A stretch of 64,000 nt of DNA, from the NCBI RefSeq assembly GCF_036206005.1, contig NZ_CP108143.1, forward strand, positions 3,672,001-3,736,000. Direction: 5' to 3'. The position numbers were made by a program, and so were the translations under genes. The notes below the pieces were generated by a model that worked only from the letters and a program-made list of their open reading frames with translations, did no database searches and had not been told where the DNA came from. This DNA is from Streptomyces sp. NBC_00178. Its GTDB lineage: Bacteria > Actinomycetota > Actinomycetes > Streptomycetales > Streptomycetaceae. Below, in pieces: positions 15,724 through 21,407 of this stretch; the stretch's first letter is position 1; each line of letters opens with the position of its first letter.

Positions 15724-16314
15724 TCAGCCGGCGCGCATGCCCTCGAAAGCGAGCCGGACGACCGTGTCGGCGAGCTGGTCGGCCTCCGGCGAGCCGCCCT
15801 GCTGCGGCCGGTACCACTCGACCAGCGAGTTCACCATGCCGAAGAGCAGCCGGGTGGCGAGCCGTATGTCCACGTCGGCGCGCAGGTCACCCTCCGCCAC
15901 CGCGGCCTTGAGCAGCTCGGACACCCGCTGGTCGAACTCGCGCCGCCGCTCCAGGGCCCAGCGCTCGGTCCTGGTGTTGCCCCGCACCCGCAGCAGCAGA
16001 GTGACGTACGGCAGCTCGTCCATGAGGACCTCGACCGTGCGGCGGGTGACGTACTCGACCCGGGCTATCGCGCGGCCCCGGTTCGCCCCCGCCTCGTCGA
16101 GAATGCCGAAGAGCCCGTCGAGGGCCCGGCTGACCGCCCGCCGCAGCAACTCCTCCTTGCCCGCCACATGGTGGTAGATGGAGGATTTCGAGATGCCCGC
16201 CGCCTTGGAGAGGTGCTCCATGGACGTGCCGTCGTAGCCGCGCTCGTTGAAGACGCGGACGGCAACGGTGAGAAGCGTCTCCGGGGTGTACGTGTCCCGC
16301 TTGGGCGTGGTCAT
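15724..16314 (-). CDS. TetR family regulator, probable repressor of phenylacetate genes (PaaR-like)
   Basis: 196 residues. The N-terminal TetR helix-turn-helix is LLTVAVRVFNERGYDGTSM plus ISKSSIYHHVAGKEELLRRA (about residues 14-60). The remainder is helical ligand-binding and dimerisation domain. It is divergent from paaN across a 123-bp region holding the operator ACCGATCGTTCGGT, and the same 18-bp sequence recurs before paaA. In Actinobacteria, TetR proteins next to paa genes repress them until phenylacetyl-CoA binds. I therefore infer PaaR function; ligand and sites are not proven here. Confidence 0.82.
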   Translation of the reverse strand: MTTPKRDTYTPETLLTVAVRVFNERGYDGTSMEHLSKAAGISKSSIYHHVAGKEELLRRAVSRALDGLFGILDEAGANRGRAIARVEYVTRRTVEVLMDELPYVTLLLRVRGNTRTERWALERRREFDQRVSELLKAAVAEGDLRADVDIRLATRLLFGMVNSLVEWYRPQQGGSPEADQLADTVVRLAFEGMRAG

Positions 16315-16336
16315 GTCCGCGATCCTCCCCCATGAG

Positions 16337-16345
16337 TTGTCCACA
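16337..16345 (+). promoter_or_regulatory. DnaA box in the paaR-paaN intergenic region
   Basis: Perfect TTGTCCACA, 21 bp upstream of the paaN operator and just upstream of the paaN -35. Confidence 0.6.
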
Positions 16346-16361
16346 GGTTCTCTGGGGCCCC

Positions 16362-16389
16362 TTGTCCCGACCGATCGTTCGGTTACTCT
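16362..16389 (+). promoter_or_regulatory. paaN promoter overlapped by the TetR operator
   Basis: -35-like TTGTCC (16362-16367), 16-nt spacer, -10-like TACTCT (16384-16389). The 18-bp operator CCGACCGATCGTTCGGTT (16367-16384) fills the spacer, so bound repressor would exclude polymerase. The same 18 bp appear inverted at 21492-21509. Confidence 0.68.
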
Positions 16390-16437
16390 AACTCCGTCCG
16401 CACACACCCGCCCGGCTCGACGAGGAGTTGGTCCGTG

Positions 16438-18138
16438 ATGGCCCCCGCGCTTTCCCCCGAAAAGCTGTCCGAGATCCACCGCCCGACGCTCGACCAGGCA
16501 CTCGACGCGATCCGCACGCGCGCGTACTGGTCCCCGCATCCCGAGCACCCGAAGGCCTACGGCGAGGACGGCCTCCCGGGCAGCCTCGGCGCCGCCGAGG
16601 GCAAGGCCGCGTTCGACGCGGTGCTCAACACCCGCATCGACCTCGGGCAGCCCGGCACCGACGGCTGGACCGGTGGGGAGACCTCGCCGTACGGACCGGA
16701 GCTCGGCGTCGAGTACCCGCACGCCGACCCGGACGTCCTGCTTCCCGCGATGCACGCCGCCATGGGTTCCTGGCGTGCGGCGGGACCCGAGACGCGGGCG
16801 CTGGTCTGCCTGGAGATCCTCGCGCGGATCAGCGGGCGTACGCATGAGCTGGCGCACGCGGTGATGCACACCAGCGGGCAGGCCTTCGTGATGGCCTTCC
16901 AGGCCGGCGGTCCACACGCACAGGACCGCGGCCTCGAGGCGGTGGCGTACGCCTACGCGGAGCAGACGCGCACGCCCCGCACCGCGGACTGGTCCAAGCC
17001 GCAGGGCAAGCGCGACCCGCTCCAGCTGCACAAGTCGTTCACAGCGGCCGGACGAGGTGTCTCGCTGATGATCGGCTGCAACACCTTCCCCACGTGGAAC
17101 GGCTACCCAGGCCTCTTCGCGTCGCTCGCGACCGGCAACCCCGTGCTGGTCAAGCCGCACCCGCGGGCCGTCCTGCCGCTCGCCCTGACCGTCCAGCTGG
17201 CACGCGAGGTACTGGCCGAGGCGGGATTCGACCCCAACCTCGTCGCACTCGCCACCGAACACCCGGGCGAGGGCATCGCCAAGACCCTTGCCCTGCGGCC
17301 CGAGATCAAGATCATCGACTACACGGGCTCCACGGCCTTCGGTGACTGGCTGGAGGCCAACGCCCGGCAGGCTCAGGTCTACACGGAGAAGGCGGGCGTC
17401 AACACCGTCGTCATCCACTCCACGGACGACTACCGGGGCATGCTCTCCAACCTGGCCTTCTCGCTCTCCCTCTACAGCGGCCAGATGTGCACGACCCCGC
17501 AGAACCTGCTGATCCCCAAGGACGGGATCAGCACGGACGCCGGTGACAAGCCCTACGAGACCGTGGTGGCGGACATCGCCGACGCGGTGAGCGGTCTCCT
17601 CGGCGACGACGCCCGCGCCAACGGACTGCTCGGCGCCCTGGTGAATCCGGACGTGAAGGCCCGCCTGGAGGCTGCATCGGGTCTGGGCGACGTCGCCCTC
17701 GCCTCACGCCAGGTGGCCAACCCCGACTTCCCCGACGCCGTGGTGCGTACGCCGGTCGTGGTGAAGCTCGACGGCACCGAACCCGACGATGGGGCGGCGT
17801 ACCTGTCCGAGTGCTTCGGCCCGGTCTCCTTCGCCGTCGCGGTGGAGTCGGCCGAAGCCGCCCTGGACCTCCTGCGCCGCACGATCAGGGAGAAGGGCGC
17901 CATGACCGTCGGCGCCTACACCACCTCGTCCGAGATGGAGCGCGCGATCGAGGACGTCTGCTTCGACGAGTCGGCCCAGCTCTCGCTGAACCTCACCGGC
18001 GGGGTGTTCGTCAACCAGACCGCCGCGTTCTCCGACTTCCACGGCTCGGGCGGGAACCCGGCAGCCAACGCGGCACTGTGCGACGGCGCGTTCGTCTCCA
18101 ACCGGTTCCGGGTGGTCGAGGTCCGCCGCCAGGCCTGA
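16438..18138 (+). CDS. paaN: Phenylacetic acid degradation protein PaaN (aldehyde dehydrogenase family)
   Basis: 566-residue ALDH-fold protein of the actinobacterial PaaN group, which acts in the aerobic phenylacetyl-CoA pathway (oxidising the ring-opened semialdehyde intermediate). The catalytic Cys is in SGQMCTTPQNLL and the general-base Glu in YTEKAGVNTV. NAD-binding features are VLVKPHPRAVLPLA and DYTGSTAFGDWLE. No enoyl-CoA hydratase domain is fused, unlike E. coli PaaZ. ATG 16438 and GTG 16435 overlap; GAGGAG at 16422-16427 could serve either. The gene is separated from paaABCDE by 3.4 kb but carries the same operator. Confidence 0.88.
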   Translation: MAPALSPEKLSEIHRPTLDQALDAIRTRAYWSPHPEHPKAYGEDGLPGSLGAAEGKAAFDAVLNTRIDLGQPGTDGWTGGETSPYGPELGVEYPHADPDVLLPAMHAAMGSWRAAGPETRALVCLEILARISGRTHELAHAVMHTSGQAFVMAFQAGGPHAQDRGLEAVAYAYAEQTRTPRTADWSKPQGKRDPLQLHKSFTAAGRGVSLMIGCNTFPTWNGYPGLFASLATGNPVLVKPHPRAVLPLALTVQLAREVLAEAGFDPNLVALATEHPGEGIAKTLALRPEIKIIDYTGSTAFGDWLEANARQAQVYTEKAGVNTVVIHSTDDYRGMLSNLAFSLSLYSGQMCTTPQNLLIPKDGISTDAGDKPYETVVADIADAVSGLLGDDARANGLLGALVNPDVKARLEAASGLGDVALASRQVANPDFPDAVVRTPVVVKLDGTEPDDGAAYLSECFGPVSFAVAVESAEAALDLLRRTIREKGAMTVGAYTTSSEMERAIEDVCFDESAQLSLNLTGGVFVNQTAAFSDFHGSGGNPAANAALCDGAFVSNRFRVVEVRRQA

Positions 18139-18298: not shown

Positions 18299-19015
18299 TC
18301 AGTGGCCCTGCGGGCCTGGGGACGGGATGTCGGCGTACCGCTGCACCCAGGCGTGCATGGCGATGGCTGCGGCGGCTCCCGCGTTGATCGACCGCGTGGA
18401 GCCGAACTGCGCGATCGAGCACACCATGGAAGCGTGCTTGCGCGCCTCTTCCGTGAGCCCCGGGCCCTCCTGTCCGAAGAGGAGCACGCACCGGCGCGGA
18501 AGCTCGGTCCGCTCCAGCGGTACGGCCCCTGGCAGGTTGTCGATCCCGATGATCGGGAGGCCCTGGGCCTGCGCCCACGCGGTCAGGTCCGCCGTGTCCG
18601 GGTGGTGCCGCACGTGCTGGTAGCGGTCGGTGACCATCGCTCCCCGGCGATTCCAGCGCCGGCGCCCCACGATGTGGATCTCCTTGGCGAGGAAGGCGTT
18701 GGCGGTGCGAACGACCGAGCCGATGTTGAAGTCATGCCCCCAGTTCTCCACCGCCACGTGGAAGTCGTGCCGCCGGAGATCGAGATCGGCGACGATCGCC
18801 TCCCGCGTCCAGTAGCGGTAGGCGTCGCCCACGTTGCGCCGGTCCCCGTTCGCGAGGAGCTCCGGGTCGTAGCGGTCCCCCTCGGGCCACGGCCGCGGAT
18901 GCGGCCCGACACCGATCTCGTCGCCGTAGCCGTCGTCGTACTGGGCCGGCTCCGCGGACGGGTCGGTCGCCGGTGTCGAGAGGGGGTCTTCTGCACTGCC
19001 GGTCTCGCTGGTCAC
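18299..19015 (-). CDS. TrmH/SpoU family RNA 2'-O-methyltransferase
   Basis: 238-residue SPOUT methyltransferase that would methylate a tRNA or rRNA ribose with S-adenosylmethionine. The three SpoU motifs are intact: NWGHDFNIGSVVRTANAF (motif 1, Asn and Arg), LLFGQEGPGL (motif 2), and FGSTRSINAGAAAAIAM (motif 3) in the trefoil knot. The first ~75 residues are acidic and low-complexity. The GTG start overlaps the HTTM gene stop (GTGA), so it is the last gene of a three-gene coupled operon. The exact RNA target is unknown. Confidence 0.88.
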   Translation of the reverse strand: MTSETGSAEDPLSTPATDPSAEPAQYDDGYGDEIGVGPHPRPWPEGDRYDPELLANGDRRNVGDAYRYWTREAIVADLDLRRHDFHVAVENWGHDFNIGSVVRTANAFLAKEIHIVGRRRWNRRGAMVTDRYQHVRHHPDTADLTAWAQAQGLPIIGIDNLPGAVPLERTELPRRCVLLFGQEGPGLTEEARKHASMVCSIAQFGSTRSINAGAAAAIAMHAWVQRYADIPSPGPQGH

Positions 19016-20292
19016 CCGACGAGCGTATGGCCCTTGCCACCGCCGCCGCGCGGTGCCTCCCCCTCGTCCATGGCGGGACCTCGCTGCGCGGGCACGGTGT
19101 GCCCGTCCTTCGAAGGCCGGGAGAACAGCCGTCCCCGGCCCAGCGTGACCATGCGCCCCAGCCAGACGAGGAAGACCGTCGGCAGGAAGACCGCGTCCGC
19201 GGCGATCATCGCCATCGAGAAGAAAGGCAGTCCCAGCAGGACGGCGATCCCCGCGTGCTCACCGATCATGAGCACCAGCAGCACGTTCTTGACGCGGCGG
19301 TTGAACAGCGTGAAGGGAAAGGCGACCTGCACGATGACCGTGGCGTACGTCATCACCATGACCATCAGGGCGCTGGAGGCCACGATGCCGGAGAGCCCCG
19401 GCCAGGGCGCGAAGTAGTCCAGCTTGAGCGGGTAGTAGATCGCGGTGCCGTCCTGCCAGCGGGATCCCTGGATCTTGTACCACCCGGCCGTGGCGTAGAT
19501 CAGGCACACCTCCGCCATGATCACGAGCAGGGCGACGTTGTGAGCCAGGTTGGCCAGGACGTCGAGGAGGGTGCGCAGCTCGTGCCCCGGCGCGTAACGG
19601 CTCAGAGCCCACCAGGCGCCGTTGCCGAGCCAGAGGACCCACAGGACCGCGGGCAGCCACCAGGTGCCGCCCAGCCCGCCCAGCCCGCCCAGCACCGTGG
19701 CGATGATCAGTACCGCGCCGAGGACGCCCCACAGAAGCGGTCCCACCACGTCTCGGGGCGGCTGGAGCCCCTCCGCGAGGCGCGCGGCACGCCGCGTCGC
19801 GCGGCGGGCGTCGACCGACCAGACCCGAGCGCAGCGCGTGAGCACGAGGTAGATCGCCATGAGGTGGATGACGTTGTCGCCGCCGTCGCCCATGAAGATG
19901 CTGCGGTTCTGGAGGGAGAGCACCCCCACCATGAACAGGACGGACGCGAGCCGCGTTCGCCAGCCGATCAAGAGCAACGCGGCGGACACCAGTGTGAGCG
20001 CGTAGACGAACTCGAACCAGATCGCGCTGTCCGACCACATCAACACCGTGAAGGCGCCGTTGCTGGAGAGGAGACCGCGCGCCATGTCCCAGCTCCACGG
20101 TCCGTCAGGGCCGTAGAGCTCGCGACGGTGGGGCAGTTCCCGCAGCAGGAACAGCAGGCAGGTCGCGGAGATCCCGATCCGGACGACGGCGCTCTGGTAG
20201 GCGCCGAGGGGCCCCTCGGTGACGCGCTGGACGGCCCGGGACACCGAGCTGCCCGCGTTCCCGGGGATGCGGGTGGCGGTGGAGGTGCTCAC
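19012..20292 (-). CDS. HTTM domain (vitamin K-dependent gamma-carboxylase-like) membrane protein
   Basis: 426-residue multi-pass membrane protein. Hydrophobic helices include VVRIGISATCLLFLL, FVYALTLVSAALLLIGW, VVGPLLWGVLGAVLIIATVL and IVASSALMVMVMTYATVIVQ. Conserved-looking HTTM features are RNRSIF-like QNRSIFMGDGGDNVIH, YATAGWYKI and the polar loop SRWQDGTAIYY. The HTTM family shares its fold with vitamin K-dependent gamma-carboxylase, but no bacterial substrate is established in general. The GTG start overlaps the DUF5819 stop and its own stop overlaps the methyltransferase start. A Gly-rich tail follows the last helix. Confidence 0.87.
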   Translation of the reverse strand: MSTSTATRIPGNAGSSVSRAVQRVTEGPLGAYQSAVVRIGISATCLLFLLRELPHRRELYGPDGPWSWDMARGLLSSNGAFTVLMWSDSAIWFEFVYALTLVSAALLLIGWRTRLASVLFMVGVLSLQNRSIFMGDGGDNVIHLMAIYLVLTRCARVWSVDARRATRRAARLAEGLQPPRDVVGPLLWGVLGAVLIIATVLGGLGGLGGTWWLPAVLWVLWLGNGAWWALSRYAPGHELRTLLDVLANLAHNVALLVIMAEVCLIYATAGWYKIQGSRWQDGTAIYYPLKLDYFAPWPGLSGIVASSALMVMVMTYATVIVQVAFPFTLFNRRVKNVLLVLMIGEHAGIAVLLGLPFFSMAMIAADAVFLPTVFLVWLGRMVTLGRGRLFSRPSKDGHTVPAQRGPAMDEGEAPRGGGGKGHTLVG

Positions 20293-21407
20293 TTCTGCGC
20301 CCTCCCGTCGCGCAGTGCCTGTTCCGTCGTGTCCGTACCAGGCAGATCGGCCGGCTTGACCGTCCACCACGGGAGCACCCGGTACTGGGGATCGGTGTTG
20401 ATCTTCTCGTCGCTCCACGACGGGGCTCCCAGGGAACGCACGGATGATCGCACCTGTATCCGCTCGACCCTGCCGGCGAGGTCGTGGTCGGCCAGGCGCA
20501 GCATGACGATGCGGCGGATGTAGCGCTCGGACAGGTCCCCGCGGAGGCCGTTGGAGCGGTTCTCGCTGTCGTGGGAACCGGTGAAGAAGTCCCAGGCGCG
20601 ACGGAGTTCGTTCTGGTCGACGTGGCTGGGCAGGACGTTGCCGTGTATCGCCTCCCCGTCCTCGCGCGAGAGGTCGATCCAGCGGGTGGTGCTGTACCCG
20701 TCGTCACCGTCCACCTCGGCCCGCACCTGGACCGCGATGTTCTGCTGGAGCGGATTGGGTGCGAACAGTTTCCAGTTCTGCTCGAACTCGGGGTAGACCC
20801 AGTCGTCGACGACCGCGCCGTGCTGTTTCGTGAGCGTGTTGGACGGCGCGACGTGCAGGAAGATCATGGCGATGTGTCCGCAGGCCAGGACGCCCATGAC
20901 GGCCAGCGCGATCGCGGCCGCGACCTGGTACGGAAGGGAGAGGCCCGCCATGCCGATTCCGCCCGGACGCCGTACCGGCTCCTCGGGCGGAGAGCTTTCG
21001 TCGGCGGACGTCTCCGCGGTGGGCGACGCCTGACGCTCGTCGCGGGCGGCACCGCTTGCTCCGGACAGCGGTCGCGGGGGTTCGTCCATGCCCGGACCGT
21101 GCTCCTGACGGGTTGCAGCCGCGGAGACGGGCTCGGACAACCGGTCCGACAACCCGTCTGTCGACGCCCGGGCCTCGGGCCTGCCGCCGGGGGCCGGTAT
21201 CCCCGCGTGCGGGTCGTGAGCCTCCGGTCCGGGGACGTCGTGGTCCAGGGCAGGGGCACCTCCCGGATCCCCGGCGCCGTCCGCGTTCGGGCCGGTACCG
21301 GACCCCGCGTCCGGCTCACGGTCGCGAGCGGGGTCAGGGTGCCTCGTCACGCCGGACCTGGAACGCTCGTCGTCGCTTCCCGCGCGCCCACCGAGCTCCG
21401 CATCCAT
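20289..21407 (-). CDS. DUF5819 family membrane protein
   Basis: 372 residues, function unknown. The N-terminal ~150 residues are acidic, Pro/Asp/Glu-rich and presumably disordered in the cytoplasm. One transmembrane helix follows (YQVAAAIALAVMGVLACGHI), then an extracytoplasmic domain with the DUF5819 blocks PSNTLTKQHG, YPEFEQNWKLFAPNPLQQN and VLPWWTVKP. The ATG at 21407 is chosen; a GTG at 21434 is in frame but has no ribosome-binding site. It is the first gene of the DUF5819-HTTM-TrmH operon and is divergent from paaA. The two membrane proteins probably work as a pair; this is inference from coupling. Confidence 0.78.
   Translation of the reverse strand: MDAELGGRAGSDDERSRSGVTRHPDPARDREPDAGSGTGPNADGAGDPGGAPALDHDVPGPEAHDPHAGIPAPGGRPEARASTDGLSDRLSEPVSAAATRQEHGPGMDEPPRPLSGASGAARDERQASPTAETSADESSPPEEPVRRPGGIGMAGLSLPYQVAAAIALAVMGVLACGHIAMIFLHVAPSNTLTKQHGAVVDDWVYPEFEQNWKLFAPNPLQQNIAVQVRAEVDGDDGYSTTRWIDLSREDGEAIHGNVLPSHVDQNELRRAWDFFTGSHDSENRSNGLRGDLSERYIRRIVMLRLADHDLAGRVERIQVRSSVRSLGAPSWSDEKINTDPQYRVLPWWTVKPADLPGTDTTEQALRDGRAQK

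What the first reader, a model, noticed from the sequence alone, without database searches (positions are those of the whole stretch)
18299..21407. Overlapping DUF5819-HTTM-TrmH operon inserted between paaN and paaA
Three genes are linked by GTGA overlaps: a single-helix DUF5819 protein, an HTTM (gamma-carboxylase-like) membrane protein and an RNA ribose methyltransferase. None has a known substrate here. The HTTM fold is related to vitamin K-dependent carboxylase, so the pair may carry out a membrane-bound redox or modification reaction. This is the least understood block in the window.
Basis: inference. Interest (0 to 1): 0.62.

Follow-up and report, generated by a model that had tools for sequence, protein, structure and literature searches.

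The report
Vitamin K-enzyme-like membrane pair in Streptomyces
A small gene pair of unknown use, found in nearly every genome sampled from what is probably Streptomyces, makes a membrane protein shaped like part of the human vitamin K carboxylase plus a partner that travels with it across many bacterial phyla; it may use a vitamin K-like cofactor to modify something outside the cell, but what it modifies is unknown.

Summary
The three genes and both GTGA overlaps are real. The biological unit is the DUF5819-HTTM pair, not a paa insertion: 40 of 40 fetched main-copy loci (picked by DUF5819) have HTTM beside it, while 8 of 40 lack paaABCDE nearby; the methyltransferase is of two different kinds. 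DUF5819 occurs in 100 of 101 genus genomes (own included); in a phylum sample, 12 of 12 DUF5819 matches lie beside an SdpB-like HTTM. A 'QxWxxFAPxP' partner gene precedes HTTM in 40 of 43 loci from at least seven phyla. DUF5819 is probably a remote SdpA relative, and the HTTM protein a relative of SdpB (B. subtilis SDP toxin maturation). The HTTM model matches human GGCX (Z 20.6). The catalytic base K218 and pocket residues W223 and F299 are kept; the glutamate-site H160 is never His in 115 rows, and pocket residues F286 and F294 are mostly changed. I read it as a quinol-using, probably non-carboxylating membrane enzyme (confidence 0.5). Paralogues sit beside ice-binding-like proteins or short signal-peptide-bearing peptides ending in '[FY]D'; the window's core copy has no such neighbour, and its substrate is unknown.

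The parts
20289..21407 (-). DUF5819 gene (SdpA-like partner): low-complexity N-terminus, one TM helix, small alpha/beta domain (extracytoplasmic side inferred). Start uncertain (ATG 21407; the gene finder preferred ATG 21089)
   Evidence: PF19136 1.8e-63; model mean pLDDT 69; start codons read from sequence
20751..20780 (-). QNWKLFAPNP motif, the signature shared with partner proteins in other phyla
   Evidence: alignments A2, A7; motif scan of 43 loci
19012..20292 (-). HTTM gene (SdpB-like; GGCX transmembrane-domain fold), 426 aa; the only PF05090 locus found in the genome at E 0.001
   Evidence: PF05090 36.5 bits; TIGR04033 63 bits, below cut-off 178.4; own-genome search; model pLDDT 81.4, pTM 0.79; GGCX Z 20.6
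19432..19497 (-). Site segment Y266...K273...W279-G282-A284-Y287, aligned to GGCX Y211...K218...W223-G226...Y231
   Evidence: profile-to-GGCX alignment, numbered by hand; K in 114, W in 115 of 115 HTTM rows
19219..19257 (-). H346 to F358 of HTTM, aligned to GGCX H287 to F299
   Evidence: H in 115 of 115, F in 113 of 115
20289..20292 (-). GTGA overlap, DUF5819 stop / HTTM start
18299..19015 (-). SpoU/TrmH-like RNA 2'-O-methyltransferase; positional companion, not judged part of the mechanism
   Evidence: PF00588 2.6e-24; a SpoU-family cluster follows HTTM in 39 of 40 loci, but two different clusters are involved, only weakly alike (27% over 70 residues)
19012..19015 (-). GTGA overlap, HTTM stop / SpoU start

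Best explanation
DUF5819-HTTM is a two-protein membrane enzyme of the SdpA-SdpB type. The HTTM subunit has the fold of the GGCX transmembrane domain. It probably binds reduced menaquinone, deprotonates it with K273 (= GGCX K218) and lets it react with O2 to make a strong base or oxidant. Its glutamate site is rebuilt (H160 position Gly, followed by Asp; no luminal propeptide domain), so the reaction is probably not Glu carboxylation. DUF5819, anchored by one helix, would sit on the outer face and present or recognise the substrate, in place of the GGCX luminal domain. The window's copy is the core version in its genus and would act in trans on exported protein or peptide encoded elsewhere. Shown by computation: pairing, fold, conserved Lys/Trp/His/Phe, a probable remote SdpA link. 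Inferred: quinol use, chemistry, side of the membrane, complex formation, substrate.
For: Pairing: 12 of 12, two of them below the Pfam cut-off; partner gene immediately 5' of HTTM in 39 of 43 loci by profile plus L190 by its WGMFGKPP variant. Fold: profile against human GGCX E 1.6e-12; Foldseek ranks 1-16 all GGCX, 14 of them at E 0.001 or better; VIA Z 20.6, rmsd 3.6 over 274 residues, best non-GGCX row 5.4. In 115 aligned rows (113 distinct, related): K218-equivalent K in 114, W223-equivalent W in 115, F299-equivalent F in 113, H287-equivalent H in 115. Roles of K218, W223, F299, H160 in GGCX: PMC12589487. SdpA link: hhalign score 37.6 against a column-shuffled mean of 11.5, maximum 24.1, 0 of 200 reaching it. 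SdpA and SdpB are required to process SdpC: PMC6818787 passages. Secreted-type neighbours in paralogue classes B and C. DCC1 thiol-redox genes in 10 of 131 loci, 7 of them not used to build the profile, one joined to HTTM. The own genome has two DCC1-like matches and one VKOR match elsewhere.
Against: The GGCX quinone pocket is only partly kept: at the F286 position F in 14 of 115, at F294 F in 2, at N290 N in 1, and H160, which also lines the ring, in none. The core copy has no secreted neighbour: 0 of 40 loci have a co-directional upstream gene within 400 nt. In the multi-phylum set signal peptides are not enriched upstream: 4 of 19, against 94 of 335 other genes. TIGR04033 is far below cut-off (63 of 178.4 bits), and the genome has no SdpA or SdpC match. 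hhalign probability of the SdpA link is 37-75% depending on alignment and settings, and about 5% with a single SdpA. DUF5819 has no PDB fold match at E 0.001, with a low-confidence model. Nothing shows quinone binding or chemistry directly.
Confidence: 0.5

Rival explanations
1. A housekeeping enzyme acting on membrane quinone or lipid (for example a quinol oxidase or quinone modifier) rather than on exported protein; the toxin-maturing SdpAB pairs would be a specialised offshoot.
For: The pair stands without a consistent secreted neighbour in the multi-phylum set; it is core in its genus; thiol-redox DCC1 genes recur in some loci.
Against: GGCX and SdpAB, the two relatives with known roles, both concern exported protein or peptide (PMC12589487, PMC6818787); paralogue classes B and C sit beside secreted-type proteins.
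Confidence: 0.24
2. A true bacterial gamma-glutamyl carboxylase making Gla residues.
For: GGCX fold and K218-equivalent Lys; the class C HTTM of plasmid NZ_CP135078 carries an automatic peptidyl-glutamic acid carboxylation GO term.
Against: The H160 position is never His in 115 rows, and the N159 position is Gly in 90 and Asn in 1 of 115; the luminal propeptide-binding domain is absent (model aligned only within GGCX 31-331).
Confidence: 0.08
3. A non-enzymatic membrane assembly that helps export or membrane release of substrate; conserved residues are structural.
For: NCBIfam model names call SdpB and SdpA 'export' proteins; much of the GGCX quinone pocket is not conserved.
Against: Near-invariance of Lys, His and Trp at a known catalytic site over many phyla.
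Confidence: 0.12
4. A functional partner of phenylacetate catabolism or of RNA methylation, as its gene neighbours suggest.
For: 39 of 40 main-copy loci keep paaN within the fetched stretch and 39 of 40 have a SpoU-family cluster gene next to HTTM.
Against: paaABCDE missing in 8 of 40 and the SpoU gene is of two different kinds; tblastn with the window's paa and SpoU proteins found them in none of the class B or C loci searched.
Confidence: 0.04

Closest known systems
SdpA-SdpB (sdpABC, Bacillus subtilis SDP toxin maturation; TIGR04034/PF17418 and TIGR04033)
   Same: Gene order (single-TM partner then HTTM); SdpB-family profile similarity; remote SdpA similarity around Q-x-W-x-x-F; Lys, Trp, His and Phe present in all 5 SdpB rows too.
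   Different: Below the SdpB cut-off; no SdpA-family or SdpC match and no class C-type precursor in the genome; present in 100 of 101 genus genomes, against 6 of 101 with SdpA.
GGCX, vitamin K-dependent gamma-glutamyl carboxylase (human)
   Same: Transmembrane-domain fold; K218, W223, F299, Y211, H287 equivalents.
   Different: H160, F286, F294 and N290 mostly or wholly changed; no luminal propeptide-binding domain; a separate DUF5819 partner instead.
HTTM proteins of linaridin clusters (e.g. crdG of corynaridin)
   Same: An HTTM-domain protein assumed to help mature a small exported peptide (PMC9927463, one passage read).
   Different: Not compared by sequence here; that linaridin partners and chemistry differ is recalled.

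Membership tests
Pfam HTTM (PF05090) | score above the curated cut-off | tested here: met
   36.5 bits, cut-off 27.7
Pfam DUF5819 (PF19136) | score above the curated cut-off | tested here: met
   214.6 bits, cut-off 27.1
SdpAB toxin-maturation pair | SdpB-family membership (TIGR04033 cut-off) | tested here: not met
   63 bits, cut-off 178.4; a relative, not a member
SdpAB toxin-maturation pair | SdpA-family partner (TIGR04034/PF17418) | tested here: not met
   no match in the own genome; DUF5819 only remotely similar
SdpAB toxin-maturation pair | SdpC precursor in the genome | tested here: not met
   no TIGR04032 match in the own genome at E 0.1
SdpAB toxin-maturation pair | required for processing of an exported precursor | not testable with these tools
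   needs a mutant
Gamma-glutamyl carboxylase (GGCX) | transmembrane-domain fold | tested here: met
   Z 20.6, rmsd 3.6, 274 residues; best unrelated row 5.4
Gamma-glutamyl carboxylase (GGCX) | catalytic base K218 | tested here: met
   K273; Lys in 114 of 115 rows
Gamma-glutamyl carboxylase (GGCX) | quinone-ring pocket residues (W223, F286, F294, F299) | tested here: inconclusive
   W in 115 and F299 in 113 of 115, but F286 in 14 and F294 in 2 of 115
Gamma-glutamyl carboxylase (GGCX) | Glu-site H160 | tested here: not met
   Gly in 96 of 115, never His
Gamma-glutamyl carboxylase (GGCX) | luminal propeptide-binding domain | tested here: not met
   426 aa; model aligned only within GGCX 31-331; no further Pfam domain
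Gamma-glutamyl carboxylase (GGCX) | carboxylation activity | not testable with these tools
   needs an assay
TrmH (tRNA Gm18 methyltransferase) | NCBIfam equivalog cut-off (NF008295) | tested here: not met
   50 bits, cut-off 227; SpoU superfamily PF00588 is met

The most novel reading that the evidence does not exclude
A core enzyme pair of Streptomyces, with relatives in at least seven other phyla, carries out a menaquinol- and O2-dependent, non-carboxylating modification or cleavage of exported proteins: a second branch of vitamin K enzymology in which a DUF5819/SdpA-like subunit replaces the GGCX luminal domain and DCC1 thiol oxidoreductases (or VKOR) recycle the quinone. SDP-type toxins and the short '[FY]D'-ended peptides beside class C pairs would be specialised substrates.
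Probability: 0.27. Interest if true: 0.85.

Novelty: new variant of a known kind. Interest (0 to 1): 0.58.

Why it matters
How SdpA and SdpB mature the SDP toxin is, as far as I know, unexplained. A shared two-protein architecture with the GGCX fold and catalytic lysine gives a concrete, testable chemistry (K273/K218, menaquinol, O2, thiol recycling) and a core homologue that can be deleted in laboratory Streptomyces. It also casts doubt on the automatic 'peptidyl-glutamic acid carboxylation' label seen on one such protein and points to a possibly undescribed family of short secreted peptides. Of the library's 5.39 million openly licensed papers none holds 'DUF5819' and two hold 'HTTM domain'; other literature was not searched.

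Tried and rejected
Phenylacetate link: rejected as the main function, because paaABCDE is absent in 8 of 40 loci that have the pair. Three-gene functional unit: weakened, because two different SpoU clusters (28 and 11 of 40) follow HTTM and one locus (L126) has neither.

A general 'secreted gene next door' rule: tested with a crude signal-peptide scorer and not supported in the multi-phylum set (4 of 19 co-directional upstream genes within 400 nt, against 94 of 335 other genes). In classes B and C the scorer found 6 of 11 and 3 of 6; by eye it missed precursors with wrong start calls, so its counts are rough. 32 of the multi-phylum pairs were scored; the rest were not called as a gene pair.

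Precursor family in the own genome: none found with a profile of 9 class C peptides. Of 13 matches in 12 of 101 genomes, the 7 strong ones (E 2.1e-17 or lower, 6 genomes) are all sequences the profile was built from, so they add nothing; 6 weak ones (E 2.8e-4 to 9.2e-4) were not followed.

DUF5819 fold search: no PDB match at E 0.001. Mirror-tree correlation of the two partners (r 0.87 for 26 multi-phylum pairs, permuted maximum 0.24) is also expected from shared species history and is not used as proof. PDB sequence searches with the single window proteins found nothing useful; the family profile did. Perez Morales 2013 on SDP processing could not be read (not held). Literature searches pairing SdpB with vitamin K/HTTM, and on linaridin CypL, gave nothing useful; a search on bacterial vitamin K-dependent carboxylase homologues was only seen as a listing. 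First hhalign of DUF5819 against a single SdpA was inconclusive. Confidence was lowered from a draft 0.55 to 0.5 (and the novel case from 0.30 to 0.27) after one search showed that several GGCX pocket residues are not conserved.
Full report
What is there. The window carries three minus-strand genes, SpoU/TrmH-like (18299-19015), HTTM (19012-20292) and DUF5819 (20289-21407), joined by two GTGA overlaps, between plus-strand paaN and paaA. The window lies in a 7.38-Mb genome of two contigs. The genus is not named by the tools; I take it to be Streptomyces by inference, because the four best plasmid matches of the HTTM protein are Streptomyces. The genome has one DUF5819 match, and both its PF05090 matches lie in this one HTTM gene. 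Four-base overlaps are common here (10 of 38 same-strand neighbours), so overlap by itself says little.

The unit is the pair. In an even draw of 198 genomes of the phylum, DUF5819 gave 12 matches in 10 genomes (10 of the 12 over the family cut-off), and every one lies within 0.9 kb of a match to the SdpB-family profile TIGR04033. TIGR04033 itself matched 15 genomes, so SdpB-like HTTM also occurs without a recognised DUF5819. Within the genus 100 of 101 genomes (own included) have DUF5819; the one without is an assembly of about 1140 contigs rated 99% complete. I fetched main-copy loci of 40 of these genomes, about 20 kb each, chosen because they have DUF5819. All 40 have HTTM beside it; 39 have paaN; 32 have paaABCDE and 8 have none of those five genes; 39 have the rhodanese gene and 40 the J-domain gene. 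The gene after HTTM belongs to a SpoU-family cluster in 39 of 40: the window's kind in 11 and another in 28 (one member, L111, confirmed as PF00588; 27% identity over 70 residues to the window's); L134 has both. So the pair is the stable element, and paaABCDE and the methyltransferase kind vary. Whether paaABCDE was gained or lost around it was not tested.

The pair is widespread. A scan of named genomes with an alignment of five distant HTTM relatives returned 43 loci from Actinomycetota, Cyanobacteria, Bdellovibrio-type and other deltaproteobacteria, Myxococcales, Chloroflexi, Planctomycetes, Verrucomicrobia, Acidobacteria and one Saprospiraceae. In 39 of 43 a gene matching the DUF5819 or SdpA-like profiles lies directly 5' of HTTM, 19 of these with a called -4 overlap; L166 is among the sequences the profile was built from, and L152 holds only the end of the gene. 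A fortieth (L190) has a 221-aa gene with the variant NSWGMFGKPP. In L159 the contig begins just before HTTM; L191 and L192 have no match. DUF5819 with HTTM is also annotated on two Bacillota plasmids. The shared signature is Q-x-W-x-x-F-A-P-x-P after one TM helix.

Relation to SdpA and SdpB. The window HTTM scores 63 bits with TIGR04033, below its 178.4 cut-off: a relative, not a member. A true sdpC-sdpA-sdpB operon lies in another genome of the genus (G023), and SdpA occurs in 6 of 101 genus genomes, not in this one. DUF5819-type alignments against an alignment of 7 SdpA proteins give hhalign probabilities of 57-75% and 37-66% with other settings. Against 200 column-shuffled SdpA alignments none reached the observed score (37.6 against mean 11.5, maximum 24.1), and a reversed alignment gave 11.7. 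A comparison with one SdpA alone gave about 5%. I treat the homology as likely, not proven. SdpA and SdpB are required to process exported SdpC to the 42-residue SDP toxin (PMC6818787, passages; PMC13343845, passages).

Relation to GGCX. A profile of 28 family HTTM proteins matches human GGCX in the PDB set with E 1.6e-12. The AlphaFold model of the window protein (34 rows, pLDDT 81.4, pTM 0.79) has GGCX at Foldseek ranks 1-16 and in VIA-align at Z 20.6, rmsd 3.6 A over 274 residues, against 5.4 for the best non-GGCX row. Numbering the alignment by hand gives K273=K218, W279=W223, F358=F299, H346=H287, Y266=Y211, G138=H160. In GGCX, K218 is the base that deprotonates vitamin K hydroquinone; F286, F294, F299, H160, V210, M401 and W223 line the ring pocket; N159, H160 and Y395 hold the glutamate (PMC12589487, first of three parts read, passages; it does not mention H287). 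Over 115 aligned family proteins (113 distinct, related, 5 of them SdpB) K is kept in 114, W223 in 115, H346 in 115 and F299 in 113. The H160 position is Gly 96, Glu 11, Ala 3, Ser 3, Trp 2, followed by Asp in 108. Against a fully kept pocket: F286 is F in only 14, F294 in 2 and N290 is N in 1 of 115. Reading: the catalytic base and part of the quinone pocket are kept, the glutamate site is rebuilt, and the luminal domain is missing.

What it might act on. Paralogues give hints. Class B: of 15 scored pairs, 14 have a co-directional gene directly upstream (gaps 48-658 nt); 13 of these belong to one cluster, of which one member is confirmed as PF11999 ice-binding-like, and the other (L081) starts similarly but was not scanned; L083 has none and L109 was not scored. 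A plasmid copy is annotated ice-binding/DUF5819/HTTM. Class C: in 7 of 10 loci (L085-L093 and L107) a peptide of about 100-130 aa with a signal-type N-terminus, ending in [FY]D plus zero to two residues, lies upstream; L086 and L087 have another gene there and none was found in L093. A serine-hydrolase cluster (two members confirmed as PF00144) lies nearby in six of the ten. A Streptomyces parvus plasmid shows peptide, DUF5819, HTTM, DUF393 and serine hydrolase, and a Virgibacillus plasmid a peptide, DUF5819 and an HTTM protein with a DCC1 domain. DCC1-like genes are in 10 of 131 scanned loci, 3 of which built the profile; distances range from fused or adjacent to about 5 kb, and chance was not modelled. 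The own genome has two DCC1-like matches and one VKOR match, all elsewhere. Against a general rule: the core copy has no such neighbour in 40 of 40 loci, and in the multi-phylum set signal peptides are not enriched upstream. The core copy's substrate is therefore unknown.

Conclusion. Shown by computation: a conserved DUF5819-HTTM pair, a GGCX-like transmembrane fold with conserved catalytic Lys and a few pocket residues, a non-conserved glutamate site, and a probable distant link of the partner to SdpA. Inferred: menaquinol-dependent, non-carboxylating modification of exported material, with DUF5819 as substrate-presenting subunit. I put 0.5 on this reading.

Noticed in passing
L202:4037-4369; L091:9218-9610; L088:9225-9587; L092:5798-6121; L107:5201-5503; L085:10445-10801; L089:8834-9199; L206:2175-2480: Short peptides with signal-type N-termini ending in [FY]D plus zero to two residues, upstream of class C DUF5819-HTTM pairs: a possible undescribed SDP-like bacteriocin family in Actinomycetota and Bacillota.
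   Followed up: partly
L206:3491-4831: Virgibacillus plasmid protein joining an HTTM region to a DCC1-like thiol-disulfide oxidoreductase domain.
   Followed up: partly
L204:2900-6089; L070-L080, L082, L108: Ice-binding-like (PF11999, one member confirmed) proteins with Gly-rich tails in apparent operons with DUF5819 and HTTM paralogues.
   Followed up: partly
L096:4777-12099 and L097: Cluster with divergent DUF5819-like and HTTM-like genes (both below Pfam cut-off) and, judged by eye, a methyltransferase, hydrolase, ABC transporter, FAD oxidoreductase and a 57-aa peptide; may be a peptide biosynthesis locus.
   Followed up: no
L100:10454-15000: A 1308-aa repeat protein, secreted-looking by eye, lies 2 bases upstream of an SdpA-like/HTTM pair; two related lipoprotein-like genes follow.
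   Followed up: no
L095:9578-11371: One genome has the N-terminal half of DUF5819 in one open frame with HTTM; a deletion fusion or an assembly error.
   Followed up: no
window 16314-16438 and L111:15361-16875: 30 of the 80 fetched loci carry a roughly 500-aa gene (by eye a 3-hydroxyacyl-CoA dehydrogenase, not scanned), in the printed maps mostly between tetR and paaN; the window lacks it.
   Followed up: no
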